Source: a virus
IMG/VR virus record: IMGVR_UViG_3300018080_000028
Span: 1-52,987 of that record
Length of the DNA stretch: 52,987 bases
Strand: one strand, 5' to 3'
In this document: piece after piece, positions 5,631 to 44,008 of the stretch
How the letters are laid out: each line of letters begins with the position of its first letter
Numbering within the stretch: the stretch's first letter is position 1
The notes under the pieces: model-generated
The model's database searches: none
The model's input: only the letters and a program-made list of their open reading frames with translations
Told to the model about the DNA's origin: nothing
Program-made: the position numbers and the translations under genes

Positions 5631-6781
5631 TGCCAAGAACTATTATGCAGATGCCAACCATTGCTCAGATTGGGGATTTGCCGTTACATATGCACCTATC
5701 TGAATGGCATGGACGCGAACTGTCGGCGCAGGGTAAATCATATGAATTGACCACTTCTTATCGCGCTGCCATAGCGCATAATCCTTATATCCCGGAAATG
5801 CAGGATGTGTCGTTGAAGGTCGTTATTTATGCTGTGCATGGATTGAGCGTATCACATTTGCGCAATCTGCTCGAACGTTTGCTTGGCAGGCATCTTGATA
5901 TTTTTGCTTACGAGATGATTGGATGCCAGGACGATTTTGGATATTGTTGTTGCCAGTACGGATACGCTGACCTGCTCTGGTTAAAAACGGTTGGCCGGTT
6001 GACTGATGTCAGATTAAATTCATCTGATTTCAGATTTTTAACCGGAAGAATCGATCTCGAATTACACAGCTACTGGACACCGGTTTCAACTGCCATCTGG
6101 AAGATCGGCAGCAAAGACTATGCCACACCAGCGTTTACTGATGATGAAACTATAGCCGCACCTTATGAGGATCACATTACCCCCTACCCCGGACCTGAAA
6201 AATGGTTGCGGACCAAAACTTTACAATCGTGGTATTCGCTCAGACCGGTCGATAGATCGTTTGTTTATGACCCTGACTACGGAGTGGCGCTATGCAACAA
6301 ACATGATCCAAATCTACCGCGCTGTCGTTATGCCAGCACATGGGCAGTTTGTCCAGGTGGGAATCCGCCGTCTTACGCGGTTTTTGCTACTCAACCGCGC
6401 TGGTCTGCGCCGCCGTCGTCACTTTATATGTTTAAGGGATTTGAGAATGGAGATACCGATCTTCTGACGATCGAGGTCCGCCGTGAAGATGAAATCTGGG
6501 ATATTGCTCAAACTACCACAACCATCGATGTCGGGGAAATAGATGATTTGATGACGACTGCCGGTTACACGCTCGCTACCACTGATGTGATTGTGGTTGG
6601 AGATGTATTGCAACAACCGGGTTTTGTATTACGCGCCGGAGAGAAACTGGTGTTTATCGGATCAGCCGTAACACGAGATGGTGGAATGTGGCCGGGCCAA
6701 TTGGCACCGGGTTACAACCGGATTGTGATTGATTCGAGCGACGGTTATCACGCACAGCATCATGTGTTCAGGAGTCTGTAA
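5630..6781 (+). CDS. distal tail protein (Dit-like)
   Basis: 383 residues. ATG at 5630 overlaps the tape measure stop. Position directly after the tape measure is that of the distal tail protein joining tube and tail tip in siphoviruses. The N-terminal 170 residues alternate beta-strand-like segments (SLKVVIYAVHGLS, FRFLTGRIDLELHSYW), compatible with a Dit/tail-tube-like fold; the C-terminal half looks like an added domain. The call rests on gene order and on the Tal-like gene that follows with another one-base overlap (TAATG). Confidence 0.65.
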   Translation: MPRTIMQMPTIAQIGDLPLHMHLSEWHGRELSAQGKSYELTTSYRAAIAHNPYIPEMQDVSLKVVIYAVHGLSVSHLRNLLERLLGRHLDIFAYEMIGCQDDFGYCCCQYGYADLLWLKTVGRLTDVRLNSSDFRFLTGRIDLELHSYWTPVSTAIWKIGSKDYATPAFTDDETIAAPYEDHITPYPGPEKWLRTKTLQSWYSLRPVDRSFVYDPDYGVALCNKHDPNLPRCRYASTWAVCPGGNPPSYAVFATQPRWSAPPSSLYMFKGFENGDTDLLTIEVRREDEIWDIAQTTTTIDVGEIDDLMTTAGYTLATTDVIVVGDVLQQPGFVLRAGEKLVFIGSAVTRDGGMWPGQLAPGYNRIVIDSSDGYHAQHHVFRSL

Positions 6782-8331
6782 TGTATCTAATGCGTTTGAA
6801 TGGCCGGGATTTGCCCGTTTCAAAACTGTCGTTAAAGATTCAGCAGTCTAAAATACCGACCTTTGAAGCGATTGTCCCTCTTAAACTGGTTGGAGCAACA
6901 CCTGAAGAACTGTTGTTTGCCGACACTGCGATATATGAAGATGGGCAACTTGTGATTGCCGGAATAGTGTCTGGCATTCCGATACCGGTTCTTTATGATG
7001 GCAATGTCGGATTTTTGCGTATTATGGCCGACGATAGCCTGGGATTGCTTTATCTCGAAGAAGCTGTAGACCTCCATTTCCAGAATACCAATATCAGCGC
7101 TGCTCTAACGCTGTTGCTCGCCACCACAACTTTATCGACGTGGGCTGTTGGAGATACGAGCACTCTGGTCAATGATCCTATTACAGTTGACGTTCGTAAT
7201 AAAGAAACATTGTGGGCGCAAATTCAGGGATGTGTTGCAGCGCTTGAGAACCCGACATACGTTCGGTATGGTGGGATCGTTGCCGGAATTCACCAGCTTG
7301 ATCTCGGCAGTTTTGGCGAAAACAACCCGGATTTAAGGGCAGTTCAGGGTGATAACTTGATTGATATGCCAAAATTTAAACGCGCAAATACAGACCCGAT
7401 AAAAACCATGCGCCCGATTTCAGGCAAGGTTGGTGGAGCAGTAGTTGATTTGTCGCGGGCTTTAAACATTCAGCCTGGTCTGGCGGCTGATCCAGATTAT
7501 CCGCTTAATGCAGGTTCGCAAACTATTACAAACAATACCATCACAGTTGGTGTGCGAGTGCGAAAAACATTTACTACTGTGAAAACCAGCAATGCCAGCG
7601 CCCCGACTGATGCGGAACGCGACGAGGCTGCGCTCTGTCTGTACTATACGGCAGTGCGCGAGATCAAAAGACGCAATCCCAAAACACAGTGTTCTTTTGA
7701 TGTTTTTTTGCCGCAACTGCCGCCCGTAAATGATAAAATCTGGGTCGATTTTACGGTGTATGAACGTATGTACGACGAGTATCAGGAAATATGGGAATAC
7801 ATACAAACATCTGAATTGCGTGGATGGTTTCGGATAACGTCTGTTTCTGCTAAAATTACAAGTAATGTCTCATCGTCGGATATGATCGAAGAACAAAAAA
7901 CGGATGGACAGATATACGCAATAACCGTCACAGATGGTGACGATGCTGACATTTATGATGCCAATGATGTGTTGTTTTCTAAGCTAGATGAAAACGAACT
8001 TGAAGATGCTGCGGACGGGATCACCGGCGTAATCTGGGCCACATCGGTTGATGTTACATGGTTTGGTGTTGGCGGGAACTGTGATCGTGGTGGTGGTGCC
8101 GGGCCAAACAGCGGCAGGATATTCAGTTTTCCAATGCCAACCATTCCGGCTGGCGCAACGATTGTAGATGCGATGATCACTAACAGGTCTGACTCAACGA
8201 CACAATGGATTGTATTAACCAATGCAGCATTACCGGCCACCAATTATAGCATCTGCTCAAGCGGTTCAGGACCTGCGAATTGGGGAGTTGGTGACAACAT
8301 TACTTATCGAGCAACTTATGTGTTTAGGTAG
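6781..8331 (+). CDS. tail-tip hub protein (Tal / gp27-like)
   Basis: 516 residues. The first 380 residues have the look of the baseplate-hub fold of Tal/gp27-like proteins: a short N-terminal beta unit (MYLMRLNGRDLP), IAGIVSGI, then a DNLIDMPKFKRANTDPIKTM segment typical of the third hub domain. The last 120 residues form a separate Gly/Thr/Ser-rich beta domain that may reach the receptor-binding proteins. No peptidase motif stands out. Its place between the Dit-like gene and the paired tail-tip genes supports the role. Confidence 0.65.
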   Translation: MYLMRLNGRDLPVSKLSLKIQQSKIPTFEAIVPLKLVGATPEELLFADTAIYEDGQLVIAGIVSGIPIPVLYDGNVGFLRIMADDSLGLLYLEEAVDLHFQNTNISAALTLLLATTTLSTWAVGDTSTLVNDPITVDVRNKETLWAQIQGCVAALENPTYVRYGGIVAGIHQLDLGSFGENNPDLRAVQGDNLIDMPKFKRANTDPIKTMRPISGKVGGAVVDLSRALNIQPGLAADPDYPLNAGSQTITNNTITVGVRVRKTFTTVKTSNASAPTDAERDEAALCLYYTAVREIKRRNPKTQCSFDVFLPQLPPVNDKIWVDFTVYERMYDEYQEIWEYIQTSELRGWFRITSVSAKITSNVSSSDMIEEQKTDGQIYAITVTDGDDADIYDANDVLFSKLDENELEDAADGITGVIWATSVDVTWFGVGGNCDRGGGAGPNSGRIFSFPMPTIPAGATIVDAMITNRSDSTTQWIVLTNAALPATNYSICSSGSGPANWGVGDNITYRATYVFR

Positions 8332-16501: not shown

Positions 16502-17332
16502 TCATGTAAAACAAGCTCCGCTATCACACTCACCTTGTCCCCAATCAGGAAAGGGTAAGTGGTACTGCAACCCTACCGCTTGCTTGAGTGGTTTCAGGTC
16601 GGGATGAATATACACTTGTCCCCGCTTCAGGTCTGCTAATTTTAAGTTGATGTATTGCTCAACTAATACCGCTCGCCTGAATAATGCCGGATTGTAAGCC
16701 CGCATCCGTAACCATTCGTTCCGTTTGGTAAAAGGGCAGAAATAACAACTGGATTTTGGCGGTGTTGGTAATCCCGCTTTAGATATAATACGATGACAAG
16801 TGTTTCGATTAATTTTTAAATCTATTAAAGGGTGTTCCATTTTTTGCCAAAACCCTAATTTCTTTTTGCCGATGGTATCCTTCCAGAATTCACCCTTCAC
16901 TCGTGTATACTCATCTAAACTGATGCCTAGCCCCGTTATGCAATGCGTATACCCGATTTTTTTTATGTGCTGATTAATGGGTACTATCTTAAAATCATAG
17001 GTGCAAGCGCGTGTTCCAGGCGGAGAACCATTGCCACTAAATACCGGAATAACCATGCTCCGGTGCGTTCGGTAAATGTATTGCAGCAATGTCTCGGCCC
17101 TTTTTCTAGTTGTTTTTTGTACCTCTACTAACCGTATCCCGTGTTTTTCCATATATGGGCGGGCATATCTATTGATGTATTCAAGCGTGGCAGGATTCTC
17201 GCTATCGTTACCGACGTTGGCAAAGATAAAATAATCAAACGGTTCTATTTTGCCTTGGGCTTGCAGTACCATCACAGCATTGGATTGTACGCCACCGCCG
17301 TAGTTATATATTCGTACAGGTTTTTCTGGCAT
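16502..17332 (-). CDS. PP-loop / PAPS-reductase-family protein
   Basis: 276 residues. N-terminal YNYGGGVQSNAVMVL is the PP-loop ATP-pyrophosphatase motif of the adenine-nucleotide alpha-hydrolase superfamily; GTRACTYDFKI and PPKSSCYFCPFTKRNEW are typical of the phage PAPS-reductase-like branch with its Cys pairs. Phage members are usually linked with DNA modification rather than sulfate assimilation. Neighbours here are three methyltransferase genes, one of them broken. A role in nucleic-acid thiolation or modification is inference. The stop overlaps the TTG of the decayed methyltransferase. Confidence 0.8.
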   Translation of the reverse strand: MPEKPVRIYNYGGGVQSNAVMVLQAQGKIEPFDYFIFANVGNDSENPATLEYINRYARPYMEKHGIRLVEVQKTTRKRAETLLQYIYRTHRSMVIPVFSGNGSPPGTRACTYDFKIVPINQHIKKIGYTHCITGLGISLDEYTRVKGEFWKDTIGKKKLGFWQKMEHPLIDLKINRNTCHRIISKAGLPTPPKSSCYFCPFTKRNEWLRMRAYNPALFRRAVLVEQYINLKLADLKRGQVYIHPDLKPLKQAVGLQYHLPFPDWGQGECDSGACFT

Positions 17333-19149: not shown

Positions 19150-21180
19150 CTACTGTACTACTTCAAACATAAGCTGGTCTGATTTGCGGCGCATTTTAAC
19201 GTAGTTGGGCGCAGCCGCCATGCTGTTTTTCATCACTGCGATGATGACGTTGCCGGTTGGGTACGGTTCACCCTGCTCGTTCAGCAACAGTTCATGAACG
19301 GTTTTCCCCCGTTTTTCTACAGGTTCGCGCAAATATTCGGGATTCATCGACACAAACAGGTTAAAGATGTCTCCCCTGCCCCAGTTCATGTCCTGGACAC
19401 CGATGAAGCGGCCACTGCCATCGCTCCGGGCTTTTTCTTCGGCGGCTTTATTGACCTGCCCGACGATCAGGGTGAACAGGTTGGCTTTGGCCGAGACCTG
19501 TTTGATATGTTTTTGTTTGGCTTCTTCTTCGTTGCGCGAAAAAGTGTCCAATCCGGGCAGGGCCTGGAGATAGTCCAGAACTGCAATACGGCAGGGCAAA
19601 CCCTGTTTGCGCAGGGTTGTGGCAGTGTCGGCAATATATTCCATTCTACGGCGCAATTCGGACAGTTCTCCTGATTCGTTGTTGACGAACTGTTGCTGGC
19701 CTTTTTGAGACTGGATCAGTTTTGCGAACTTGACTAATTTTTCCATCCGTTCGTTTTTGATTTCTTTCGCCATTGGCAACACCGGTTCCAAACCCTGTTG
19801 TTTGCGGTGAATGACGTGCATATGCAACAACATATCCATGTAGGTGATTTCGCCGCCGCTGAGTTGTTGGATGTCGCGCATAATCGATTCGGGAGGCAAC
19901 CATTCCGGTTTGTCGGAGATGGGGTACTCGTCGATAGACAGCCAGTACCGGATCATTTGTTCAATCATGGTAGTTTTGCCCACGCCGGTCCCGCCCACCA
20001 GAGCCGCCGCTTTACGCATTGACAGCACCTGACAGTACCCTCCCAGGTGCCACATTTCCGGGATCGGCCACACAATCGGCGCTCCGAACACGTCAAAATT
20101 TCCTTGCAGCGCCTTGAGCAATCCGCTAACCGCATCCGGCGTGCTCATAACAGGTTTGACGGCGGCGGGGTCGAGTGTGGGGGCGGCATTACTTTTTTTG
20201 TTGTTTTTATGCCACTCGGCCACACGTTTTTTACGGTAATCCAGCCATGGTTCCACTTTTAAAGCGGAAGCGATCTGATCCCATGCGTTTTCAATGTCCT
20301 GTATACCGCAGGAACACTGCGGTTTGCCGTAACCGCTCTCATCATAACTGATGCGGAAGCTGGGGTGTTCATCTTTGTGAGAGGGCAACGGACAATGCCA
20401 GCGTTCTACGCCTCCCTCTTTTTTAGCTGATGGTCCCAGCGCGGTTACAACCAACCCGATCCAGTCCTTCATGAATTGTTTGAAGTCTGGTTGCGGCGCG
20501 ATCGTAGGAGGGCCTGGCGAAGACGGTGGTACGGGATCACCGTTCCACAGGACTGCTTCCAGTTCCTCGACCTTTACGGTGTTAATCAGTGCCAGTTTAA
20601 AATCTCCGGGTTGAAACTGCACCTGTTGCCAGACAGAGTTGACATCGTTGCCGCTTTTTTCCACAATCGGTCCGGGAACCTGATAGACGGCCAGTTTTAT
20701 CCCGCTGGCCAGCAGCAGGTGGTGCAGCTTGGATGCTGCCCGGCATCCGGTCAGGTCACGGTCGGGATAATAACGCACCTGTTCAACGCCCAGTTCTTGC
20801 AGGTCGGCGACCAGCGTTTGCGGGACGCTGGTTTCACCATTCAACCAGCACAATACATTTCTGATTCCGGCGGCGATGAAGGTGAGCACGTCAGGTTCTC
20901 CGGCTGCGATATGTAAAGTGCCAAGGTGTTCTGCGATGATGGTTTTGATGTCGGGCAGGTGATAATAGGGATGTTTGCAGCTTTGAGGCCATGCGTATTT
21001 AAGTTTGTCCGATTTGGGATCGAACGATTTCCAGCGGGTGCCAACCTTTTCCCCGTCGAAATTAAAGATCGGGTAATTACATCCCGCCAGACCTTTATAT
21101 GCAGGAGTGACGATTTCCCAATCCAGTTCAATTGAGGCTTCCAGTATTCCGCGATCTTTACGGCTTTTAGGCGGGTTCAT
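19150..21180 (-). CDS. primase-helicase: TOPRIM + CHC2-like zinc + DnaB-like ATPase
   Basis: 676 residues from ATG 21180, which has GGAGG; the longer frame is not used because it runs into the preceding gene without a ribosome site. Domains: residues about 85-170 TOPRIM-like (HIAAGEPDVLTFIAAG with the Glu, YYPDRDLTG with Asp-x-Asp); about 257-290 a zinc site HCPLPSHKDEHPSF...CSCG; about 385-600 a RecA-fold helicase with Walker A VGGTGVGKTT (near 395), Walker B VLDYLQAL (near 533) and the DnaB-like LIVGQVNK element. It should unwind and prime at the phage origin. The order TOPRIM then zinc then helicase differs from the usual zinc-TOPRIM-helicase. Confidence 0.85.
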   Translation of the reverse strand: MNPPKSRKDRGILEASIELDWEIVTPAYKGLAGCNYPIFNFDGEKVGTRWKSFDPKSDKLKYAWPQSCKHPYYHLPDIKTIIAEHLGTLHIAAGEPDVLTFIAAGIRNVLCWLNGETSVPQTLVADLQELGVEQVRYYPDRDLTGCRAASKLHHLLLASGIKLAVYQVPGPIVEKSGNDVNSVWQQVQFQPGDFKLALINTVKVEELEAVLWNGDPVPPSSPGPPTIAPQPDFKQFMKDWIGLVVTALGPSAKKEGGVERWHCPLPSHKDEHPSFRISYDESGYGKPQCSCGIQDIENAWDQIASALKVEPWLDYRKKRVAEWHKNNKKSNAAPTLDPAAVKPVMSTPDAVSGLLKALQGNFDVFGAPIVWPIPEMWHLGGYCQVLSMRKAAALVGGTGVGKTTMIEQMIRYWLSIDEYPISDKPEWLPPESIMRDIQQLSGGEITYMDMLLHMHVIHRKQQGLEPVLPMAKEIKNERMEKLVKFAKLIQSQKGQQQFVNNESGELSELRRRMEYIADTATTLRKQGLPCRIAVLDYLQALPGLDTFSRNEEEAKQKHIKQVSAKANLFTLIVGQVNKAAEEKARSDGSGRFIGVQDMNWGRGDIFNLFVSMNPEYLREPVEKRGKTVHELLLNEQGEPYPTGNVIIAVMKNSMAAAPNYVKMRRKSDQLMFEVVQ

Positions 21181-22165
21181 GTTTAACCTCCGCTTCCGGC
21201 AGCGCCGGGGGTGACGTGCGGTTGGCATCAATAGCTGCCATTAGTTCGGCAGTGTCTGGACATACCTCAGCCGCCGGTGGATTTTCCTTGAGAGCTGCCT
21301 GCCTGTGGTTCAACAGAGCGCGTGGGGTGAAAAAGTTAAAGCGCTCATCGCAGTAGTTGTAATAAGTTTTTACCATGTCCGGGGTGTCTCCGAGCTGGCA
21401 GAGTTCAGATGCCGTCTGTTGCACAAACTTTTTTTCAGCACTGGTCAGTTTGGTTTTCCAGACCAGATTAATTTCATCAGCAGTCATGTTCGGGTTAGTC
21501 CAGTTAAAACTGTGGGTGATGGCGTTTTTCATAGCGGTCATACTTTTTTTGTTTACGGAAACGCCTATAGATGTACTACTTTTAATACTTGTACTACTTT
21601 GGGTTGACTTAATAGAACTTACTCCGGGTTGTATGTTCGGCTTAGTAGAACTTACTCCGGGTTGTATGTTAGACTTAGTAGAACTTACTCTGATTGTGGA
21701 TGATCCGCGTTCCATATCCCATTTTATGGATGTTAATATGCTGGCTAACAGGGCATAGTCCGGCGACTCAAGCGTTTTAAGCAGCGTCAGGTGTGCTTTT
21801 AACACTTCCGGTTTTCGTCCAAAGTGAATGGTGGGGGTAAACTCGTTTTCGCCGACCTGTAAAATCCCGGTGATCTGGTACACATGGCGATTTCCGCGTG
21901 GTTCCCCCTGGATCCGTTTGTCTGGCGGCACGAGCAACAGCCCGTGGTTGTTTTTCCACCATTTGGTCGCGTCCCCGATCACTGATTTGCAGACTCCGAC
22001 CTCTTTGGCGAGCGTGTCCTGCGTCGGCCACGCTCGCAGGAACTGGTTGCAGTGCAGGTACAGGATGGTAAAAAACCATCCACGACATTGTTGGGCTTCA
22101 TCTCCACGACCGCCCAGCAGATGCCCGTGGGAGCGCAGGGTATACGAAATGGGTAATGATGGCAT
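21167..22165 (-). CDS. replication initiator-like protein with internal origin repeats
   Basis: 332 residues from ATG 22165 (AAGG upstream), two bases after the previous stop; longer starts lack a site. Residues about 30-110 look like a winged-helix: WPTQDTLAKEVGVCKSVIGD is a helix-turn-helix, followed by GNRHVYQITG. A Ser/Thr/Lys-rich linker (about 165-200) holds two copies of SSTKxNIQPGV plus degenerate copies, encoded by the 33-bp repeats. A C-terminal helical domain (NMTADEINLVWKTKL, MVKTYYNYCDERFNFFTP) recalls DnaD/DnaT-like loader domains. Location next to the helicase and repeats inside the gene parallel lambda O. It probably binds the origin and loads the helicase. Confidence 0.7.
   Translation of the reverse strand: MPSLPISYTLRSHGHLLGGRGDEAQQCRGWFFTILYLHCNQFLRAWPTQDTLAKEVGVCKSVIGDATKWWKNNHGLLLVPPDKRIQGEPRGNRHVYQITGILQVGENEFTPTIHFGRKPEVLKAHLTLLKTLESPDYALLASILTSIKWDMERGSSTIRVSSTKSNIQPGVSSTKPNIQPGVSSIKSTQSSTSIKSSTSIGVSVNKKSMTAMKNAITHSFNWTNPNMTADEINLVWKTKLTSAEKKFVQQTASELCQLGDTPDMVKTYYNYCDERFNFFTPRALLNHRQAALKENPPAAEVCPDTAELMAAIDANRTSPPALPEAEVKHEPA
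21609..21691. repeat. 33-bp tandem iterons, candidate replication origin
   Basis: Two and a half direct repeats: 21609-21641, 21642-21674 and a partial at 21675-21691, each opening TTARTAGAACTTACTC. Nearby GTACTACTTT occurs twice (21573-21582 and 21591-21600, 18 bp apart). They lie inside the replication-initiator gene, as lambda origin iterons lie in gene O. Confidence 0.65.
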
Positions 22166-22166
22166 A

Positions 22167-22802
22167 TCAAATATCCTTACAATGTGCGCATAACAATTGA
22201 TGATTGACAAACTGGCAGGTCAGGTCAGGCTGGTGGATGAGATTCCCGCAATTGTCACAGGGGGTATCCAACAAAGACAGTATACCAATATCGGGCACCC
22301 ATCCATCGTCCCAGAATGCGTGTGTTATCCTGGATGCCAGTGCTGTATCGATTCTGTCCGGGTAAATCATCAGGTTAACGTTGTTGATGGTTATCCACTG
22401 GACATCGGTAGCTGTCGGGTTATAAAAATCGTGTTTGCCGGTGAATCCCCACATGCGGTAGGGGTGAACAAAACTCCACCGTGTATCAATGACCAGCACA
22501 ACCGGCAGCGGGCGGATTGGCAGGGGGCACAGGAACATGGGAGCCTCCACCAGCTCCACGTTATGCGACCGGGGACGTTTTGGCAACTGTTGTACAAATG
22601 AAACCAGCGTGGTCACAATGTCGGGGTGCATCTTATACCACGACATGCTGTAGAGCGTGCAGATGCCCCAGTCGGTCTGGACGGCTTGGGAAAAACAAAA
22701 CAGATTTCGCTTGCGCAGGTCGCGTTCGCGGCTTTTGCCGTAAAACTGGAGCATGGCGGTATCCGCGTTAAAACGTGTGATTTCAGCGTAACAGTCGCTC
22801 AT
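22167..22802 (-). CDS. hypothetical protein with C-terminal zinc ribbon
   Basis: 211 residues. The start ATG overlaps the upstream stop (ATGA). The C-terminus has TPCDNCGNLIH and LLCAHCKDI, a four-cysteine zinc ribbon. The middle contains PLPVVLVIDTRWSFVHPYRMWGF with Pro/Trp-rich beta character. It sits in the replication operon next to the initiator. No family recognised. Confidence 0.7.
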   Translation of the reverse strand: MSDCYAEITRFNADTAMLQFYGKSRERDLRKRNLFCFSQAVQTDWGICTLYSMSWYKMHPDIVTTLVSFVQQLPKRPRSHNVELVEAPMFLCPLPIRPLPVVLVIDTRWSFVHPYRMWGFTGKHDFYNPTATDVQWITINNVNLMIYPDRIDTALASRITHAFWDDGWVPDIGILSLLDTPCDNCGNLIHQPDLTCQFVNHQLLCAHCKDI

Positions 22803-23123: not shown

Positions 23124-24299
23124 CTAAAAGGGTGGTTCGCCTTCTGGTATTTTGGCGGTTTCCGGCGCTGGTTTTTTCTTAGCTTCGGCGATGCCGGATT
23201 CGATTTCTTCGCGCACGACATTCCATGCGTCGCGCCAACCGGTTTTGGTTTTGATATGGTCCATGTCGATTTGTTTGGCTTTCAGGCGGGTTTTGATGTC
23301 GGCGCGGGTTAGTCCGGCGCGTTTAGCCAGGTAACAAATAGCGCTGTCGATGGCTTCATTGGGGTTGGTCAATCCCTCAAATATTTTTTCCTCCATCATC
23401 TTTTTCCAGCGCCCGGTGAACCAGTATCCATCCGCTTTACCTTCTTTGACGCAGATCACCTTTTTAACAAAGGGGATGACGAACTGGTTGAGGGCCTGCC
23501 CGGTAGACGGCACTTCGTCGGGGATGGCATTCTGGTCGGGTGCGGGTTGCGCTGGTTGATTTGATTGTTGCGTTGCGGGGGCATGGTCTTCCATATCAAC
23601 CGTGAATCGCGCCGACAACATTGCGATTGATTTAGCAGCCTGCACCAGTGCTCGTTTGTCGGCCATTTTGCGGATGCTGTTGACGGAATCGAAAACTACC
23701 ATGGGATCGTTTATTTTGCCAGGCGGGGGTTGCGATGTAATGCTTTCGGTGTTGTAGGGGAAGTTAGCGCCGCAACCTCCGGTTTTTTCCCAGCAATACC
23801 ATCCCAGTTCAGCGTCGGGCGGATCGTTGGATCGCGGTTTACTGCGCCGAATATTTTCCGCCCCGCAGGTCGGGCAGGTGAGCAGCCGGTCGCGCCAGTA
23901 GTTGGGTTCGCGGCTGTTGCACACGCCGTTGCCACGCGCCACCACGGTGCTACTTGCTGTTTGCACCAGTTCACATTCGACCTCATAGGCAAAATAGGGT
24001 GCGTCGGGGGTATGGTCGCGGGTTACGTGTACCAGATTATACTTGGGAGCCAGTCCCATTAGAGTGAGAACAACCTCGGCACCGGCCTGGTAGAGCGTTG
24101 GTTTTTTGGTGTTGGGCACGATGCCGTAATGCACGTCTTCGGCGAACACGCGGTTGATCAGGTCGTCAATTGCGTCGCGCATGGTAACAGCGCGGTTCAC
24201 GGCCTGCATTGGCGTTTCGTCGTTGTGCGGTACGATGGTCAGGCAGGTGGCCGGTTCTTCTTCTTCAACTGCAACTTCAATTACTTGGGTATCATCCAT
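23124..24299 (-). CDS. putative single-strand DNA annealing/binding protein with zinc ribbon
   Basis: 391 residues, GGAGGATC before ATG. Residues about 40-75 (DLINRVFAEDVHYGIVPNTK, then KPTLYQAGAEVVLTLMGL) match a conserved phage/plasmid family with a DYGxIPGxxKPTLxxxGAE signature, often near recombination genes. LTCPTCGAENI and a later CWEKTGGCG form a zinc ribbon. A Gln/Pro-rich linker precedes a helical C-terminal domain. The last residues, PEGEPPF, imitate the acidic-PF tip of SSB proteins. A DNA-annealing or recombination-mediator role is inference from family neighbourhood and this tail. Confidence 0.55.
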   Translation of the reverse strand: MDDTQVIEVAVEEEEPATCLTIVPHNDETPMQAVNRAVTMRDAIDDLINRVFAEDVHYGIVPNTKKPTLYQAGAEVVLTLMGLAPKYNLVHVTRDHTPDAPYFAYEVECELVQTASSTVVARGNGVCNSREPNYWRDRLLTCPTCGAENIRRSKPRSNDPPDAELGWYCWEKTGGCGANFPYNTESITSQPPPGKINDPMVVFDSVNSIRKMADKRALVQAAKSIAMLSARFTVDMEDHAPATQQSNQPAQPAPDQNAIPDEVPSTGQALNQFVIPFVKKVICVKEGKADGYWFTGRWKKMMEEKIFEGLTNPNEAIDSAICYLAKRAGLTRADIKTRLKAKQIDMDHIKTKTGWRDAWNVVREEIESGIAEAKKKPAPETAKIPEGEPPF

Positions 24300-24537
24300 T
24301 AGCTGATCCTCCGATCACTGTTTCCAATACCTGTCGTTTTTTGTCGGTCGGTAATTGCGGCAGGGGCTGGTCTGGGTACATTATTCTACGAATAGCCAGC
24401 AGCCCCAGCGTGATAATTTCGCGGTCCTTAAAACCGCGTGTGTGCAGTTCATCCAGCGTGTTTATGGCTTCGGTTTCCATATCCACGCCTTTTTTAAGTC
24501 GAGCCTGCACAAAACGGTTGCGGTCATTGTCAGTCAT
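24292..24537 (-). CDS. hypothetical small helical protein
   Basis: 81 residues, GGAGG well spaced before ATG. Highly charged helices: RNRFVQARLKKGVDMETEAI, FKDREIITLGLLAIRRIMYP. Immediately downstream of the actin-like gene in the same operon, it could be an adaptor or second partition component, but it lacks the clear N-terminal strand of ribbon-helix-helix ParR proteins. Overlaps the next gene by eight bases. Confidence 0.7.
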   Translation of the reverse strand: MTDNDRNRFVQARLKKGVDMETEAINTLDELHTRGFKDREIITLGLLAIRRIMYPDQPLPQLPTDKKRQVLETVIGGSANG

Positions 24538-24568
24538 ATAATGCCTCCAGCATATAATGCAACCAGCG

Positions 24569-25690
24569 TTAATGCTGGTTTGCCAGTGCCATTCTTAATC
24601 CACCTGCTGCATTCATGTCCATTAGCCGGACACCCTTCAGGGTTTCGACAGCGCTGTGGTCAAAAATCAGGTCCCCGTACATTTGGCGCAGGTGTTTTTG
24701 AATGAGAGCTGCCCCGCCGCCAACCACAATCACGCTGCGGCAGGTACGCGATGCCTCATACCCTGTATCGATGATGACGTTGGCGACCCAGTTGGCGTAC
24801 AGGTTGCAACGTGACTCAAACATACGTCCCAGCTTGACCGTATTTTGTGGGCCGTACAACTGGCAGTCCTGTTTACACTTGTCACAGGGGTTGCGCGATT
24901 TCGATGGGAAACAGGTTGATTTACGTTTCAACCAGCGCCGCAAAACCTCATCGATGTCACACCAGTTAAAATGGTCAAACTGTGAGCTTTCTCGTTGCAG
25001 GTCGCGCAAAACTGGCAACAGGACGTGGGATTTGATTCCGCCGTCGGTGCTGGTTTGAAACGCTTCCGGGTTAAACTGCCCGTCCTGGATGATGAAATGA
25101 TCGCTGGTCAACACGCCAAGGTCAATCACCAGATTTCTGCCGCTGAGAGCATTGGTCGGCACCTGCTCGCCGTTTTCATTGAGCACAAAACAGGCGATTG
25201 CGCCCAATCCTTCGGGCCATACTGTTACCGACCTGTAGGTCCACGTGCGCGGGTTTTTGTCGCGCTTGAACTGAATATAGGCTCGGTGGTCCAGGAACTC
25301 TTTTTTGATTTTGTTTTTTCGTCGGGCGTATACTCCGGGCGGGCAGAATACGGTCAGGTCGATGGGTTCGGGCTTCACGTGGAATTTTTGCATAATTTTG
25401 GCGATGGTTACGTCGGTCAAAAACATATGTACGCCGTCGCCATAACGCAACAGCGACTGGTGCATTTCGACTCGGCGGCGCGAGATACGCATTACGTCGT
25501 CGCCTACTACAAACCTGCCTTCAGGGGTTTCAACCCATTCAAATGACAATTCACGTTTGCCCAGTCCGAGACTGTCTCCGGTGACACTGGCGCGGATACT
25601 GGGCAATTGGAAACCGTGGATACGGCCTGAATTGTCTCGGACAAACACGTTACACATCCCGTTTCCGGTGTCAGCGCTGCCGATAATCAT
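24569..25690 (-). CDS. parM: actin-like ATPase, ParM/StbA-type segregation protein
   Basis: 373 residues, GAGGAG before ATG. The actin-fold nucleotide signatures are in order: phosphate-1 GSADTGNG (residues 3-10), phosphate-2 NLVIDLGVLTSDHFII (about 188), and adenosine motif SVIVVGGGAALI (about 325) followed by MNAAGGLRMAL. A Cys cluster (CDKCKQDC) near residue 265 is unusual and could bind metal or an Fe-S centre. ParM-type filaments push plasmid copies apart, so this supports maintenance as a low-copy circular element. Partner candidate is the one-base-overlapping gene upstream. Phage filament systems that position DNA during lytic growth are an alternative. Confidence 0.85.
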   Translation of the reverse strand: MIIGSADTGNGMCNVFVRDNSGRIHGFQLPSIRASVTGDSLGLGKRELSFEWVETPEGRFVVGDDVMRISRRRVEMHQSLLRYGDGVHMFLTDVTIAKIMQKFHVKPEPIDLTVFCPPGVYARRKNKIKKEFLDHRAYIQFKRDKNPRTWTYRSVTVWPEGLGAIACFVLNENGEQVPTNALSGRNLVIDLGVLTSDHFIIQDGQFNPEAFQTSTDGGIKSHVLLPVLRDLQRESSQFDHFNWCDIDEVLRRWLKRKSTCFPSKSRNPCDKCKQDCQLYGPQNTVKLGRMFESRCNLYANWVANVIIDTGYEASRTCRSVIVVGGGAALIQKHLRQMYGDLIFDHSAVETLKGVRLMDMNAAGGLRMALANQH

Positions 25691-25989
25691 TATAAACTCC
25701 TCATCTGGTCTAAAAAGCTGGTTGAAGTATCTGCGGTATGTTGTTCCAGGGAGGGTGTCTCTACAGGCGAAACATCCGGCGGAATCGGACGCGCTCCGTT
25801 CAGGTGTGCGCGTAAAAGCGGGAACAGTTCAAAAAGAACGGATGTATCACCTGTTTTGAGCGACAGGTACAAAATCAGCGCGTCTCTCAGGGTTGGTGCA
25901 AACAAGCGTGACTCCATCAAAGATTTGATTTCCGTATACAATTTGAGTTGTTCCGGTTTGTCGGTGTCTAACCAGAATTTAACCATCAT
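25690..25989 (-). CDS. ParR-like partition adaptor/repressor candidate
   Basis: 99 residues from the first of two ATGs at 25989/25986, GAGAGGG upstream. It begins VKFWLDTDKPEQLKLYTEI, then LFAPTLRDALILYLSLKTGDTSVLFELFPLLRAHL: a strand-helix-helix start as in ribbon-helix-helix proteins, then a Pro/Thr-rich tail ending FLDQMRSL, which resembles the C-terminal ParM-binding peptide of ParR proteins. It overlaps the actin-like gene by one base (TAATG) and has a promoter with tandem repeats just upstream, as expected for an autoregulating centromere-binding partner. Family assignment is by context and pattern only. Confidence 0.6.
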   Translation of the reverse strand: MMVKFWLDTDKPEQLKLYTEIKSLMESRLFAPTLRDALILYLSLKTGDTSVLFELFPLLRAHLNGARPIPPDVSPVETPSLEQHTADTSTSFLDQMRSL

Positions 25990-26009
25990 TCTCACAATAC
26001 CCTCTCCCA

Positions 26010-26027
26010 GAGTATATAGAGTATATA
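26010..26027. repeat. tandem 9-bp repeat in partition-operon leader
   Basis: GAGTATATA occurs twice in tandem (26010-26018, 26019-26027); 26021-26028 is also the palindrome GTATATAC. It lies just downstream of the minus-strand -10 and upstream of the ParR-like start. Candidate centromere/operator, though far fewer repeats than a classical parC. Confidence 0.45.
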
Positions 26028-26035
26028 CCTTATAC

Positions 26036-26064
26036 ATAATAACACGGGGTTTGGGGTTTGTCAA
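26036..26064 (-). promoter_or_regulatory. strong sigma70 promoter of the leftward partition/replication operon
   Basis: On the minus strand: perfect TTGACA (26059-26064), 17-base spacer, TATTAT (26036-26041). It is the best consensus promoter in the genome and drives the ParR-like, ParM and downstream replication genes. Confidence 0.85.
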
Positions 26065-26079
26065 ACAATCTGCTATAAT
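26051..26079 (+). promoter_or_regulatory. divergent promoter for 26116 gene
   Basis: TATAAT at 26074-26079 with a weak TTGGGG (26051-26056) at 17-base spacing. It overlaps the leftward promoter, so the two probably compete or are co-regulated. Confidence 0.55.
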
Positions 26080-26084
26080 TAGTT

Positions 26085-26098
26085 GTGACAATTGGCAC
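26085..26098. promoter_or_regulatory. palindromic operator candidate, copy 1
   Basis: GTGACAATTGGCAC, one mismatch from a perfect 14-bp palindrome and 13/14 identical to 34633-34646. It starts five bases after the -10 of the rightward promoter, covering the expected transcription start. Confidence 0.6.
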
Positions 26099-26115
26099 AT
26101 CTGGGAGGTTAGATT

Positions 26116-26742
26116 ATGGCAGCAATGCTGCAAATAGTTCCAAAAACTTTTGCCCAACACGACAAAATTGTGGCGCAGGGGATTACGGCCTTTGATGCCG
26201 GGATGGAGTCGTTGATTTATATTCTGGATCACGAGTTGTGGGATGGTGAGTATGACAGCGAGACCGCGTACCTGCGGGAGGTCGCTCTCCGCCACGAAAA
26301 ATCGCGTACATGGGTAATCCGGCAGGTGTCTATGGCGCGGGGCAAATCGACAGTGGGTAAAGAGTATGAGGACCTGCTGCTCGAATCGCACTGGCGCGAG
26401 TTGCAAAAATTTGACACGGAACACCTGACATCCATTGTGCAGACGGTGATCAACCGTTACGGAGGCATTACGGCCTCGCGCATCCGGCGCGTGGGTGAGG
26501 ATATGGCAATGCAGGCTCTGGGCAATTCGAGCGAGCTGGACATGGCCGACCAGGAAGCTCGTGAACGGCAGAGGGAACACATTGCCCAGTCTACCGGGTT
26601 CACCCGCGAGGTCATTACATCCTGGTGCAAGTTGTCGGAATTGCCGCTGCGCCAGTTGCGCCAGTTGCGCCAGCAGTCTGACGTGTACATTACAATATAT
26701 CGGCAAGTCCCAACACCTCCAGCGCCTCTTGCGCTGATTTAA
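26116..26742 (+). CDS. candidate regulator, only plus-strand gene in the early region
   Basis: 208 residues, GGGAGG eight bases before ATG. Helical and charged throughout: TAYLREVALRHEKSRTWVIR and FTREVITSWCKLSELPLRQL could be helix-turn-helix regions like those of ParB/KorB-type or immunity regulators. It is transcribed divergently from the ParR/ParM operon across overlapping promoters with a palindrome at its start, the classical layout of an autoregulated repressor. The C-terminus contains LRQLRQLRQQ from a 9-bp triplication (26648-26674). Its last 53 bases overlap a convergent nuclease gene. No family recognised. Confidence 0.6.
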   Translation: MAAMLQIVPKTFAQHDKIVAQGITAFDAGMESLIYILDHELWDGEYDSETAYLREVALRHEKSRTWVIRQVSMARGKSTVGKEYEDLLLESHWRELQKFDTEHLTSIVQTVINRYGGITASRIRRVGEDMAMQALGNSSELDMADQEARERQREHIAQSTGFTREVITSWCKLSELPLRQLRQLRQQSDVYITIYRQVPTPPAPLALI

Positions 26743-34618: not shown

Positions 34619-34632
34619 GAACCTTTCCTTCT

Positions 34633-34646
34633 GTGCCAATTGGCAC
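34633..34646. promoter_or_regulatory. palindromic operator candidate, copy 2, with overlapping -10
   Basis: Perfect palindrome GTGCCAATTGGCAC. On the minus strand a TATAGT -10 (34645-34650) abuts it, giving the same promoter-then-palindrome order as at 26085-26098. The matching -35 is poor. Confidence 0.6.
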
Positions 34647-34671
34647 TATATTCGGCGTGGTAGCCGGTCGT

Positions 34672-36828: not shown

Positions 36829-37391
36829 TAGGTTATTCTGATATTTACGTTTAACAATTCTATCTCAACTATTGACAATTCTATTTTTATTTTCAACATT
36901 ACGGCGGAGATTACAACGACAAACGCAAACAATAGCACGTAAGAACAAGTGCACAATCTAAATGGTATCTAATCAAACGCACAACACGCACAGTGAGATG
37001 TAAACAGCGCAACGGATACAAACACACATGCAATCTAGATAAACAGCGTAAAAGGTACGTTAAATGATGTAATGGGTATGGCTAATAGTAGGGGTATTAT
37101 AACAAACAGGATTACAATAACACATAACATAACAATAAGCATTACAAACACAATCATATAACAACAGATATAACGCTATAACAAGGGACGTTACAATACA
37201 CAATATAAGACAAAGCGCAACACTGTAACACTGAAGATAATTGTTTATGTTGCAAGTTATGTTGTGTGTAATGTGTGGTGTGTATGTGTAGCGCTATTAC
37301 GTGAGTATAAGGTTCAAACGCTGAGGCCAGTTCCGGTGGGAGAGTCTTTTGTTCGACAGGTACTTTTCAAAAACATTTTAACGGCAAATTG
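36829..37391. other. A/C-rich noncoding region (possible origin, cos/pac or control region)
   Basis: About 560 bases without a credible gene. From about 36890 to 37240 the plus strand is very rich in A and C, with recurring TTACAA (near 36913, 37113, 37143, 37191) and ATAACA/TATAACAA motifs; after about 37240 it turns G/T-rich. Position just upstream of the packaging genes makes a cos/pac site plausible; strand asymmetry and AT content also suit an origin or leader. Confidence 0.6.
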
Positions 37392-37400
37392 TGGTATAAT
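37392..37400 (+). promoter_or_regulatory. extended -10 promoter of packaging operon
   Basis: TGG then TATAAT (37395-37400), an extended -10 site without a good -35. Transcripts from it begin just ahead of the inverted repeat 37410-37483. Confidence 0.6.
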
Positions 37401-37409
37401 CTATCTATT

Positions 37410-37483
37410 GCAGAGGGTTTCACCCCAAATGGTAACGGCGTAGGTATACAAAACAGGACAAACAATAATTAGAAACCCTCTGC
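37410..37483 (+). promoter_or_regulatory. long-range 12-bp inverted repeat in leader RNA
   Basis: GCAGAGGGTTTC (37410-37421) pairs perfectly with GAAACCCTCTGC (37472-37483) across 50 bases and is followed by ATTTTAC. It spans the 5' leader of the packaging transcript; the terminator-like 3' arm suggests attenuation, antitermination or a protein-binding RNA. Confidence 0.6.
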
Positions 37484-37512
37484 ATTTTACAACAGGGGAG
37501 GGGGATAATCCA

Positions 37513-40157: not shown

Positions 40158-40237
40158 AAGGTTGTGCAAGGTTGTTTAAGTGGCTGCTCTGGATAACGCT
40201 GGCCCTGATCGCGCTGGAACTGTTGCTTAAACTTTAA
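40154..40237 (+). CDS. 27-residue membrane peptide
   Basis: 27 codons with AAGGAG seven bases before an ATG that overlaps the terL stop (ATGA). It reads KWLLWITLALIALELLLKL after a short basic start, a single membrane helix. Spacing and coupling are those of a translated gene. Its last 11 bases overlap the convergent gene. Function unknown. Confidence 0.55.
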   Translation: MKGCARLFKWLLWITLALIALELLLKL

Positions 40238-41300
40238 CCCATAAATTTAATGGGCGTTTCAGTCCAGGTTCGGTGCGTTCCAACTTGAACCCGATTCGCC
40301 AGTAAAACCCGTTGGAAAAGTTGTCTACCGGGCATTTTAATCTGATTGGCGGCGGAATGGAATTGATCAGGCTGCTTCCGATGTTCTGTCCTGTGTGGTG
40401 TGGATGAACTGCAATTTCGTAAATTGTGCTCCAACCGTCCAGCCTTTGATGCCAGTTGCAAAAACCAACTGTTCGATGCCCGTAGTTGGCAACATACAAC
40501 TCGCGCTTTTTGATACCACTCCGAAGTGATGGATATGTCACATACCCAAGTTCATTGTTGTAAAAATGTGCTAACTTTTTTATGGCGATTATGTCTTCCT
40601 CAACCGCCCATCTGATGCCAGTCGGACAACCGTTCCAGGCGGCTTGAATGTTGATGCACGACAATTCAAACGCCATATAAGGGGCATCGCGGGAGATGTT
40701 CCCATAAACTGATTCCTTTAACTGCGGCCAGAACCTGTTTTTGGACCATCTTGCCGTACCACCCGCCCAAAAAAACTGGTTGCGGGATGTTGCCATTTTC
40801 ATCGCATAGTTGCCGTCTGCGCTTTTCACATCCATGTATCTGGCCAGCTCCATCTGTTTTTGTGGACTGCCGCCTAAAAGATGTACCGGCCAACCGGCAA
40901 AATCCCATAATGGCAGCGAGGTCCCGGCGTACCCTGTCGGAACGCTGTAACCCAACCTGATCTGTTTTCTGCCAATCTCGCGCGGAATTTGGGATATAAT
41001 GCCCTGAACTTTTGGGATAATTATGATTGCCTCTTTTACAAACGGGGCTGCTTCTGTGCCCCAAGCCAGCACCTGCTCCAACTGGTTCTCGTTTTCTAAA
41101 TCCAAAACAGTTGCCAGGTCAGGTTCGTGTTGCGCCAGCGCAGATATATATTTGTTTTTGTCCGGGTTACGCCAGTCCTGGTCGATAAAAGATGGTGGAT
41201 AATATATTGTGTTCGGCATCTGAGCACCATAACTAAAACTATGTCGAAGGGCTATTTCGGCAAATCTGCGATTTCCTGCTGCACAGTAAATCAGGCGCAT
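40227..41300 (-). CDS. DUF6610-like domain fused to GNAT acetyltransferase
   Basis: 357 residues from ATG 41300; the longer frame runs back through the integrase gene. Residues about 1-215 match, from memory, the DUF6610 phage family: RLIYCAAGNRRFAEIALRHS, QMPNTIYYPPSFIDQDW, RLGYSVPTGYAGTSLPLWDF, GWPVHLLGGSPQKQMELARY. The strand/loop series and LGYSVPT/HLLGG signatures suggest a TIM-barrel-like fold. Residues about 225-330 are a GNAT domain (IYEIAVHPHHTGQNIGSSLI, the acetyl-CoA loop). Mom-like GNATs modify phage DNA bases, so DNA or host-protein modification is conceivable. Five bases after the integrase stop, without a clear ribosome site. Confidence 0.65.
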   Translation of the reverse strand: MRLIYCAAGNRRFAEIALRHSFSYGAQMPNTIYYPPSFIDQDWRNPDKNKYISALAQHEPDLATVLDLENENQLEQVLAWGTEAAPFVKEAIIIIPKVQGIISQIPREIGRKQIRLGYSVPTGYAGTSLPLWDFAGWPVHLLGGSPQKQMELARYMDVKSADGNYAMKMATSRNQFFWAGGTARWSKNRFWPQLKESVYGNISRDAPYMAFELSCINIQAAWNGCPTGIRWAVEEDIIAIKKLAHFYNNELGYVTYPSLRSGIKKRELYVANYGHRTVGFCNWHQRLDGWSTIYEIAVHPHHTGQNIGSSLINSIPPPIRLKCPVDNFSNGFYWRIGFKLERTEPGLKRPLNLWVKV

Positions 41301-41305
41301 GGGGT

Positions 41306-42292
41306 CTAATATGGCAAAAACAGGCTGTGAGATGCCTGTTCCATCTTTTTGTCTCCGCGTTTGTCGTAACGCATGGTGGTGTCTACCGAGGAATGACCGG
41401 CCATTCTTGCGACTGTGATAGCGTCGATCTCTTCTAGCATCAACGAAACAAACGTGTGACGAAGATCGTGGGGAGAAAATTGTTGGATTCCGGCTTGTTT
41501 TGCGCGATCTTTTGTCATGTTGTAAACGGATTGCGCCGATAACCTGCGCCATTCAATTCGCCCGCCGCGCCTCACAGGTAAAAACAGCGGACCGTTACCG
41601 GGCATCGGTTGAAACTCATCGTCACGCGCTTTGGAATGAATGATGGCTTCAGTGCGAAAACTTAACCAGTCCTTAAGCGGTTTTTCAGCGCCGCCAACAA
41701 AAGTTTTTCGTTCTTTGTTGCCTTTGCCGTGTTTGATCCGCAACTCGCCGGAACCTTCAGAATAATCTGCCCAGTTTAAGTTCACAAGCTCGTCGCGCCG
41801 CAACCCGCAGATGTACATGATGCCGAGCATGGCTGCGTCACGAACACCTTTGTGCTGGTTCTGGTCTGCTTTGCAGGTGTCCATCAGCGCTTTTATTTCA
41901 CCTATCTCCAGCTTGCGTCCGGCGGGCAACCTCTCGTCACGAACTCCCGTTACGGCGGCGAGCCTGTGATAACTCTCCGAGTTGGACTGGCCGAGTAGCC
42001 ACGCCTGTTTACAAACGCTGCGCAAAAAAGATAGTTCGCGGTTGATGGTCGCCGGAGCGTATCCCGCTTTTTCAAGCCATGCTCTCACCATGACGGCGTG
42101 CTGGTATTCTAACGATCCCCAATCAATTTCTTCCGGGTTGTTATTCCTGCCGCTGGTTAAAATGTCGGACAGTTTGATCAAACTGTCGCGGGCAATCCGC
42201 CGCGAGCTGGTTGACAGCGTAGCGAGATATACCAGATAGGCGTTGTCGCTGAGCGATTTTTCTGGCTTTTTAGTTAAATTGCTGGTACTCAT
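41306..42292 (-). CDS. int: tyrosine-family integrase/recombinase
   Basis: 328 residues, GGGAG before ATG. The catalytic residues are all visible: Arg in YICGLRRDELVNL, Lys in GKGNKERK, His-x-x-Arg in HDLRHTF, His in AGHSSVDTTMRYD with the nucleophilic Tyr. The N-terminal SAM-like core-binding domain precedes them. XerC/D-like in size. It should integrate or excise the phage genome. Neighbouring excisionase-like gene and small genes form a lysogeny module. The attachment site is not obvious. Confidence 0.93.
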   Translation of the reverse strand: MSTSNLTKKPEKSLSDNAYLVYLATLSTSSRRIARDSLIKLSDILTSGRNNNPEEIDWGSLEYQHAVMVRAWLEKAGYAPATINRELSFLRSVCKQAWLLGQSNSESYHRLAAVTGVRDERLPAGRKLEIGEIKALMDTCKADQNQHKGVRDAAMLGIMYICGLRRDELVNLNWADYSEGSGELRIKHGKGNKERKTFVGGAEKPLKDWLSFRTEAIIHSKARDDEFQPMPGNGPLFLPVRRGGRIEWRRLSAQSVYNMTKDRAKQAGIQQFSPHDLRHTFVSLMLEEIDAITVARMAGHSSVDTTMRYDKRGDKKMEQASHSLFLPY

Positions 42293-42482
42293 AAATGCTC
42301 TCCCTCAATTTACGACCGGCTTCAAGGGCCAGTTTCTCCCGTCCTCTGGTTCTGTCCCACTGGCAGAAACGTAAGTATCTGAATAAAATCATATTCGCCT
42401 GAATGTCGTTTTCCCAGATAGCATCGATTGCCAGCGCCAACCCGTACTGCCTGACAAACTGCACCGCTTCCTGTATGGTCAT
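42270..42482 (-). CDS. hypothetical small helical protein
   Basis: 70 residues, GAGGT before ATG. Helical (TIQEAVQFVRQYGLALAIDA, WDRTRGREKLALEAGRKLRE). Overlaps the integrase gene by 23 bases, indicating coupled expression. Could be a small regulator of the lysogeny module. No family recognised. Confidence 0.65.
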   Translation of the reverse strand: MTIQEAVQFVRQYGLALAIDAIWENDIQANMILFRYLRFCQWDRTRGREKLALEAGRKLRESIYEYQQFN

Positions 42483-43066
42483 TTGATTACCTCTATGTAA
42501 TACGGCGGGGCTACTGATCCGGTAAAATAACCGGCTATTTTAAGGGCATTGACTATTCCGCTTGTTGGCGAGCCTATAACTCCGCTGGCAATCGAGTTCT
42601 GTTTAGCCATTGACTGGTAAAACCGCATAACTCCAAGTGCGTATTCGCGCCCCGAACCAAGCGCCTGTAAACCGTCTTCGGTCTGGTGGACCTGAAAATC
42701 ATCGTAAATGGTGAAAAGCTGCCCTTTAAACCCAATCAGGAACCTGCCGTTTTCGCTGATGTTTTCGGTCTGGTTTTCGGTGTGAATGTAACCGTGTTTT
42801 CTGATGGCCTTGCGCAGTTTGGGCACGAATAACTTGCAGAGATATTCTTCCGCCTCAAAAGTGCCGAATGGCGGCGGTTTAAAATTGTACTGTAAAATCT
42901 GAGTCATACGGCCACTGCCGGAAGCACCAACCAGAATCTGCGCGTTTTTGCCGATGAAAAATACCTTTTTGCCTTTTATGGTGCGCGTTTCGTAACCTGC
43001 TGTGGTGCAACTGTCTCCGCCCATGTATACTCTGCCGTCTTCTTCCAGGCCAATGATGCAGGTCAT
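42479..43066 (-). CDS. HslV / proteasome beta-like Ntn hydrolase
   Basis: 195 residues. MTCIIGLEEDGRVYMGGDSCTT mirrors the start of HslV and proteasome beta subunits, with Thr2 positioned as N-terminal nucleophile once Met is removed, and GD-x-x-T nearby. IKGKKVFFIGKNAQILVGAS corresponds to the central beta sheet, and QALGSGREYALGVM to the conserved C-terminal GSG...A helix. No HslU/ATPase partner is present, so it may be a self-contained peptidase, form rings, or interact with host HslU. Overlaps neighbours by four bases. Confidence 0.75.
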   Translation of the reverse strand: MTCIIGLEEDGRVYMGGDSCTTAGYETRTIKGKKVFFIGKNAQILVGASGSGRMTQILQYNFKPPPFGTFEAEEYLCKLFVPKLRKAIRKHGYIHTENQTENISENGRFLIGFKGQLFTIYDDFQVHQTEDGLQALGSGREYALGVMRFYQSMAKQNSIASGVIGSPTSGIVNALKIAGYFTGSVAPPYYIEVIK

Positions 43067-43791: not shown

Positions 43792-43804
43792 TTGTCACCG
43801 TTCC

Positions 43805-44008
43805 TTATTTAAAATGATTCGGCCAGAACTGTTTGAGAGACTCCATCGTAAAAAGATACCCGTTTGAACTGCGGCGGTAATGGACATATTCAATCATGGC
43901 GCATCTTTCTACTCGCTCGCGCACCGTGTTGGGATGAACTCCCAGAAGTTTCGCAGCTTCGACTGTCGTCAACACCTGCTGTAATGGGTAATTGCTGTAC
44001 ATATCCAT
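43805..44008 (-). CDS. excisionase-like helix-turn-helix protein
   Basis: 67 residues, AAGGG before ATG. TTVEAAKLLGVHPNTVRERV is a winged-helix/MerR-type DNA-binding helix pair, followed by a short wing (YVHYRRSSNGYLF) and a final helix: the size and layout of Xis/AlpA excisionases. First gene of the integrase operon. It could direct excision or regulate the module. Confidence 0.78.
   Translation of the reverse strand: MDMYSNYPLQQVLTTVEAAKLLGVHPNTVRERVERCAMIEYVHYRRSSNGYLFTMESLKQFWPNHFK

What the first reader, a model, noticed from the sequence alone, without database searches (positions are those of the whole stretch)
24292..26098. Actin-type partition pair together with integrase: phage-plasmid-like lifestyle
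ParM-like and ParR-like genes overlap by one base under a near-consensus promoter with tandem 9-bp repeats, while the same genome carries integrase and excisionase. The phage may persist both as a segregated plasmid and as an integrated prophage, or use filaments to position DNA in lytic growth.
Basis: partly seen in the sequence, partly recalled or inferred. Interest (0 to 1): 0.75.

Follow-up and report, generated by a model that had tools for sequence, protein, structure and literature searches.

The report
Phage DNA-segregation actin, adapter gene first
A virus that probably infects Anaerolineae bacteria carries a two-gene actin-type DNA-moving machine whose only close relatives are in mobile or plasmid-like DNA of those bacteria, so it probably moves or shares out circular phage DNA; the evidence that the virus also integrates into the host chromosome is weak.

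Summary
The gene pair is real. The actin-like gene is 24569-25690(-). Its small partner, 25690-25995(-), lies upstream and overlaps it by one base (TAATG), behind a TTGACA-17-TATTAT promoter.

No other virus searched has a close relative. One Anaerolineae family does: 18 of 98 genomes, up to eight copies each, against 1 of 400 drawn across the phylum (itself from that family). The actins are 27-41% identical to the phage's. Of 22 relatives with all three genes, 20 have a partner homologue directly upstream of the actin: one conserved, adapter-first module (the order of AlpAC, the reverse of parMR). Most relatives also carry a MerR-type, probably coiled-coil third gene, recalling TubY. The phage lacks it, and alone has a four-cysteine insertion in the actin.

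The "integrase" is Xer-type, closer to plasmid and host recombinases than to phage integrases; no att site was found. The "excisionase" is a weak HTH match. The 9-bp repeats are near chance.

Best reading: a segregation cassette shared with Anaerolineae mobile DNA that partitions a circular, probably extrachromosomal prophage. Early positioning as in CGP3 is the main rival.

The parts
24569..25690 (-). actin-like ATPase (ParM/Alp type), 373 aa
   Evidence: Pfam ALP_N above cut-off; profile hits solved ParMs and Ta0583; DTGNG, PEG, DLGVLTSD and VVGGGA motifs conserved; 27-41% to Anaerolineae relatives
25690..25995 (-). adapter (ParR/AlpA-like), about 101 aa, GTG start (or ATG at 25989/25986)
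   Evidence: homologue upstream of the actin gene in the relatives, blastp E 7e-14 to 8e-10; conserved N-domain plus C-terminal tail TSFLDQMRSL / NFLxSLxAL; low-confidence model: extended start, three helices, linker, C-terminal helix
24863..24913 (-). codons of C260-x8-C269-x2-C272-x3-C276, a four-Cys insertion in the actin, possibly zinc-binding
   Evidence: absent from all 27 Anaerolineae relatives
26036..26064 (-). sigma-70-type promoter TTGACA-17-TATTAT of the adapter-actin operon
   Evidence: 11 of 12 match, extended -10
26009..26026 (.). two tandem AGAGTATAT copies between the -10 and the adapter start; possible operator
   Evidence: close to chance
26084..26099 (.). palindrome TGTGACAATTGGCACA, candidate operator or centromere site
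   Evidence: only perfect match of its pattern in the window; relatives carry GTGCCATTGGCAC-type sites before the adapter
34632..34647 (.). second near-perfect copy of the palindrome (TGTGCCAATTGGCACT), intergenic
26116..26742 (+). divergent 208-aa gene in the place where relatives have a MerR-like gene; candidate regulator, not homologous
   Evidence: no MerR-profile hit, no family, no relative in 98 genomes of that family
41306..42292 (-).
   Evidence: NCBIfam XerC 1.4e-35 over residues 19-316; 41-50% to Anaerolineae recombinases
43805..44008 (-).
   Evidence: phrog_2655 1.3e-6; MerR-like 2.8e-4
24292..24537 (-). 81-aa downstream gene in the same operon; not part of the conserved module
   Evidence: no homologue; predicted helical

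Best explanation
An adapter-first, actin-type DNA segregation module of Anaerolineae mobile DNA, carried by a phage of (probably) Anaerolineae. Inferred working: the small upstream protein dimerises, binds sites in the 120-bp region between it and gene 26116, so marks the circular phage genome and represses its own operon. Its C-terminal helix docks on the actin-like protein, which polymerises with ATP and moves or separates phage DNA copies. With the Xer-type recombinase keeping genomes monomeric, this most likely keeps an extrachromosomal circular prophage through cell division. Shown here: gene identities, pairing, order, conservation, distribution and intact nucleotide motifs. Inferred: DNA binding, filaments, segregation, prophage state.
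For: Actin family and motifs. Adapter homologue directly upstream of the actin in 20 of 22 complete relatives. Distribution: 18 of 98 genomes of one family, up to 8 copies per genome, against 1 of 400 phylum-wide. One relative lies beside a MobA relaxase and a VirD4/TraD-type coupling ATPase. Xer-type recombinase with closest matches on plasmids and lone host loci, the type seen in plasmid prophages (PMC8026635, PMC6669507). Complete circular assembly. The operon continues into a primase-helicase gene.
Against: No replication initiator, CI-type repressor or sure centromere array was identified. The phage lacks the MerR-like third gene of its relatives. The adapter hits no known ribbon-helix-helix profile and its model is poor. 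Actin genes also occur in Bacillus phages Troll and G, which I know as lytic. Most bacterial relatives are on fragments of metagenome assemblies, so plasmid location is shown only in part.
Confidence: 0.58

Rival explanations
1. AlpAC-like positioning: the pair is an early gene set that tethers circular phage DNA to filaments for efficient replication after infection or induction, with no plasmid prophage.
For: Same adapter-first order and promoter-proximal binding as AlpAC of Corynebacterium prophage CGP3 (PMC4446434); the pair heads an operon that runs into replication genes; Bacillus phages Troll and G carry actins.
Against: CGP3 is an integrated prophage with a putative integrase, while this recombinase is Xer-type; the bacterial relatives lie outside phage genomes.
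Confidence: 0.28
2. One reading: the phage both integrates (integrase plus excisionase) and persists as a segregated plasmid.
For: The tyrosine recombinase falls in PHROG integrase families, and Xer enzymes can integrate elements (PMC8026635). An HTH gene with a weak excisionase match lies upstream of it.
Against: Xer architecture without an arm-binding domain; best matches are plasmid-borne and lone host enzymes; no tRNA or dif-like site; weak Xis match.
Confidence: 0.1
3. A passenger cassette without a present role, degraded after capture (MerR gene gone, adapter shortened).
For: The phage adapter is about 101 aa against about 145-207 aa in the first relatives, and the third gene is missing.
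Against: Nucleotide motifs, start/stop overlap, strong promoter and C-terminal tail are intact; deep divergence (27-41%) without decay suggests purifying selection.
Confidence: 0.04

Closest known systems
AlpAC-alpS of Corynebacterium glutamicum prophage CGP3 (PMC4446434)
   Same: phage-borne actin with the adapter gene upstream in one operon; adapter binds repeats near its own promoter
   Different: CGP3 is an integrated 187-kb prophage with a putative integrase; no sequence comparison with AlpA or AlpC could be made here; this phage has an Xer-type recombinase
parMRC of plasmid R1 and the ParM/RHH pairs of Bacillus phages B83 and IEBH (PMC6669507, PMC8026635)
   Same: actin-like ATPase plus a small partner; B83 also pairs ParM with XerC/XerD-type recombinases and a MerR-domain gene
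   Different: in parMRC the small gene follows the actin gene (PMC6669507), as in all four parM relatives read here; sequence identity is only 17-23% to distant plasmid and phage ParMs
TubZRC-TubY type III systems (PMC7762940)
   Same: bacterial relatives of this module carry a MerR-type, probably coiled-coil third gene next to adapter and cytomotive protein
   Different: the motor is an actin, not a tubulin; this phage lacks the third gene
Anaerolineae adapter-actin family found here (genomes G027, G284, G773 and others)
   Same: homologous actin and adapter, same order
   Different: no four-Cys insertion, longer adapter, MerR-like gene present in 25 of 28 loci

Membership tests
bacterial actin-like proteins (ParM/Alp) | actin-superfamily profile match and conserved phosphate-1, phosphate-2 and adenosine motifs | tested here: met
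bacterial actin-like proteins (ParM/Alp) | ATP-dependent filament formation | not testable with these tools
   needs purified protein
type II partition (parMRC) | motor gene followed by adapter gene | tested here: not met
   the adapter lies upstream here and directly upstream in 20 of 22 relatives
type II partition (parMRC) | ribbon-helix-helix adapter | tested here: inconclusive
   no profile hit; single-sequence model pLDDT 54
type II partition (parMRC) | centromere with repeats next to the operon | tested here: inconclusive
   two 9-bp repeats near chance; palindrome at 26084 above chance
AlpAC-type phage actin | adapter first, co-transcribed with the actin | tested here: met
   one-base overlap and single promoter; co-transcription inferred
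AlpAC-type phage actin | sequence homology to AlpA and AlpC | not tested
   sequences were not in the libraries used
phage-plasmid | partition system plus Xer-type (dimer-resolving) recombinase | tested here: met
   resolution itself not shown
phage-plasmid | own plasmid-type replication initiator | tested here: inconclusive
   primase-helicase found; 21167-22210 has no family match
phage-plasmid | circular extrachromosomal prophage in cells | not testable with these tools
   the 123-bp end repeat shows a circular assembly only
integrating temperate phage | phage-type integrase with arm-binding domain | tested here: not met
   XerC profile covers residues 19-316 of 328 from profile position 3
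integrating temperate phage | attachment site (tRNA or dif-like) | tested here: not met
   other kinds of att site are not excluded

The most novel reading that the evidence does not exclude
An unreported three-protein actin segregation system (MerR-type coiled-coil protein, adapter, actin), an actin counterpart of TubY-TubR-TubZ, is spread in several copies per genome through mobile DNA of one Anaerolineae family. A phage carries a two-gene version in which a different divergent gene replaces the MerR protein and the actin has gained a metal-binding insertion.
Probability: 0.4. Interest if true: 0.65.

Novelty: new variant of a known kind. Interest (0 to 1): 0.5.

Why it matters
It shows an actin partition module shared between a phage and mobile DNA of a hardly studied bacterial phylum, and defines an adapter-first family with many members for experiments. 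It gives a test for the open question whether phage actins serve plasmid-prophage inheritance or replication positioning. The MerR-type third gene in the relatives suggests that actin- and tubulin-type systems have recruited the same kind of helper.

Tried and rejected
Direct searches with the actin alone found nothing in viral contigs, genome contigs or the phage collection, and only distant ParMs in plasmids or at high E-values. The relatives appeared only after the terminase pointed to Anaerolineae.

The downstream 81-aa gene was considered as the ParR and rejected: no homologue.

Foldseek with both small-protein models gave nothing.

phrog_691 is not specific to ParM.

No other virus of this family was found: 24 terminase relatives lack an actin, the phage sharing gene 23124-24299 lacks it, and a degenerate scan of viral contigs was empty. 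That scan is insensitive.

dif-like sites: best 17-19 of 28, no better than background.

Tandem repeats as a shared centromere were not found in the relatives; they have short GTGCC-type sites instead.

MobA relaxase occurs in only 2 of 16 actin-bearing genomes, on an actin contig only in G284, so a conjugative location is not general.

Full report
1. The observation. The window is a virus record with a 123-bp direct terminal repeat, so a complete circular assembly of 52,864 bp. The actin-like gene (24569-25690, minus strand, 373 aa) matches Pfam ALP_N above its cut-off and a PHROG called 'partition protein'. That PHROG also rings in 13 of 14 control genomes, so it is not specific. A profile of the family hits Ta0583, pCBH ParM, Alp12, Dh-cParM1 and, weakly, R1 ParM among solved structures. 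The nucleotide motifs are intact: DTGNG, PEG, DLGVLTSD, VVGGGA. The small gene 25690-25995 ends in TAATG, sharing one base with the actin start. The promoter TTGACA-17-TATTAT is the best in the neighbourhood.

2. Corrections. The two AGAGTATAT copies are close to what chance gives. The recombinase is real, but it aligns to XerC and XerD over nearly its whole length (below the curated equivalog cut-offs, so Xer-type rather than XerC itself). It is 38-41% identical to plasmid-borne enzymes and at most 32% to the listed phage integrases. In the Anaerolineae family it has 41-50% relatives; the six read in context stand alone in ordinary gene neighbourhoods. The catalytic R, K, H-x-x-R, H and Y residues are visible in the sequence. 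The 'excisionase' is a short HTH protein with weak matches. No tRNA or dif-like site was found.

3. Finding the relatives. Searches with the actin itself were empty or very distant. The terminase led to Anaerolineae, and one of those genomes held an actin at 40% identity, E 3e-76. A sample of the class gave 4 of 396 genomes, the family of G284 gave 18 of 98 with up to eight copies in one genome, and 400 genomes drawn across the phylum gave 1, from that same family. Six of nine genomes with a close relative of the Xer gene are among the 18 with the actin, P = 0.001. The host is therefore probably in or near this family; that is an inference.

4. The module. In the first five relatives read, the gene upstream of the actin is a homologue of the window's small gene: blastp 7e-14 to 8e-10, with a conserved N-terminal domain (FWLDxxK ... 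RDGIRLixDLraGxtDVLxELFPw) and an amphipathic C-terminal tail (NFLxSLxAL; TSFLDQMRSL in the phage). Across 28 loci, 22 have actin, adapter and a MerR-type gene, and in 20 of those 22 the adapter is directly upstream of the actin on the same strand. The MerR assignment is by Pfam (MerR_1, 8e-8 and 4e-10); the coiled coil is read from the sequence. The phage has no MerR hit; in that place stands a divergent 208-aa gene of unknown family. The phage actin alone has C260-x8-C269-x2-C272-x3-C276.

5. Where the relatives live. None of the neighbourhoods shares the window's structural genes. One contig (G284:C6) has a MobA/MobL relaxase and a TraD/TraG-type coupling protein. The G027 contig has a Prim-Pol primase and a D5-type helicase-primase. 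The G027 and G284:C1 contigs, read by eye, carry ImuA-ImuB-DnaE2 cassettes. Several copies per genome fit mobile or plasmid DNA, but most contigs are short fragments, and the relaxase is found in only 2 of 16 genomes.

6. Control DNA. The intergenic region holds TGTGACAATTGGCACA at 26084. The pattern GTGNCAATTGNCAC is perfect at only two places, 26085 and 34633, both intergenic (4.5% of the genome), and at none in 30 shuffles; the longer pattern with up to 2 mismatches gives 4 against 0.56 expected. Three relatives have GTGCCATTGGCAC-like sites before their adapter. This may be the adapter's binding site or that of a regulator; which one is open.

7. Mechanism and rivals. The order adapter-actin is that of AlpAC (PMC4446434), whose authors stress that it differs from parMR. 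AlpAC positions excised phage DNA for replication. Confirmed plasmid prophages carry partition genes and mostly Xer-type recombinases (PMC8026635; B83, PMC6669507), and the same source warns that partition genes alone prove nothing about the prophage state. I weigh extrachromosomal prophage maintenance above early positioning because of the Xer-type enzyme and the plasmid-like relatives, but only moderately.

8. Novelty. Actin partition in phages and adapter-first order are both known. New here, as far as the searches reach, are the Anaerolineae family, its three-gene form and the phage member without the third gene. A literature search for ParM with Chloroflexi found nothing on point.

Noticed in passing
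L174:13111-13716(-), L182:11029-11700(+), L183:3904-4467(-), L184:6553-7146(+): MerR-type, probably coiled-coil gene next to the adapter-actin pair in 25 of 28 bacterial loci, recalling TubY of type III systems.
   Followed up: partly
window 34632-34647 and 43784-43799: Further copies of the 26084 palindrome, one near-perfect and intergenic, one weaker at the start of gene 43063; possibly a phage regulon shared with the adapter-actin operon.
   Followed up: partly
window 21606-21690: 33-bp direct repeat, 2.6 copies, inside a gene (21167-22210) that looks like a replication initiator, next to the primase-helicase; candidate origin.
   Followed up: no
window 36830-37510: About 680 bp without genes, the most A+T-rich stretch of the genome, with ATAACA/TTACAATA-type repeats and a 13-bp perfect inverted repeat (37409-37484), just before the terminase genes.
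   Followed up: no
window 42479-43066: HslV-like (proteasome-type peptidase) gene close to the recombinase (phrog_1040, 8e-16).
   Followed up: no
window 40227-41303: Fusion of DUF6610 with a GNAT acetyltransferase directly downstream of the recombinase.
   Followed up: no
window 16502-17332: PAPS-reductase-like gene (phrog_424, 1e-26) near DNA-methyltransferase genes.
   Followed up: no
L187 and L175 (G027:C6), L182 (G284:C1): DNA polymerase III alpha (DnaE2-like) with ImuA/ImuB-like genes on the same contigs as the actin module in two genomes.
   Followed up: no
L231 (G027:C2) 5970-6473 and 6662-7201: Adapter and MerR-like genes without a recognisable actin beside them.
   Followed up: no
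L007: A 4.3-kb viral contig whose terminase is 100% identical to the window's over 253 residues.
   Followed up: no
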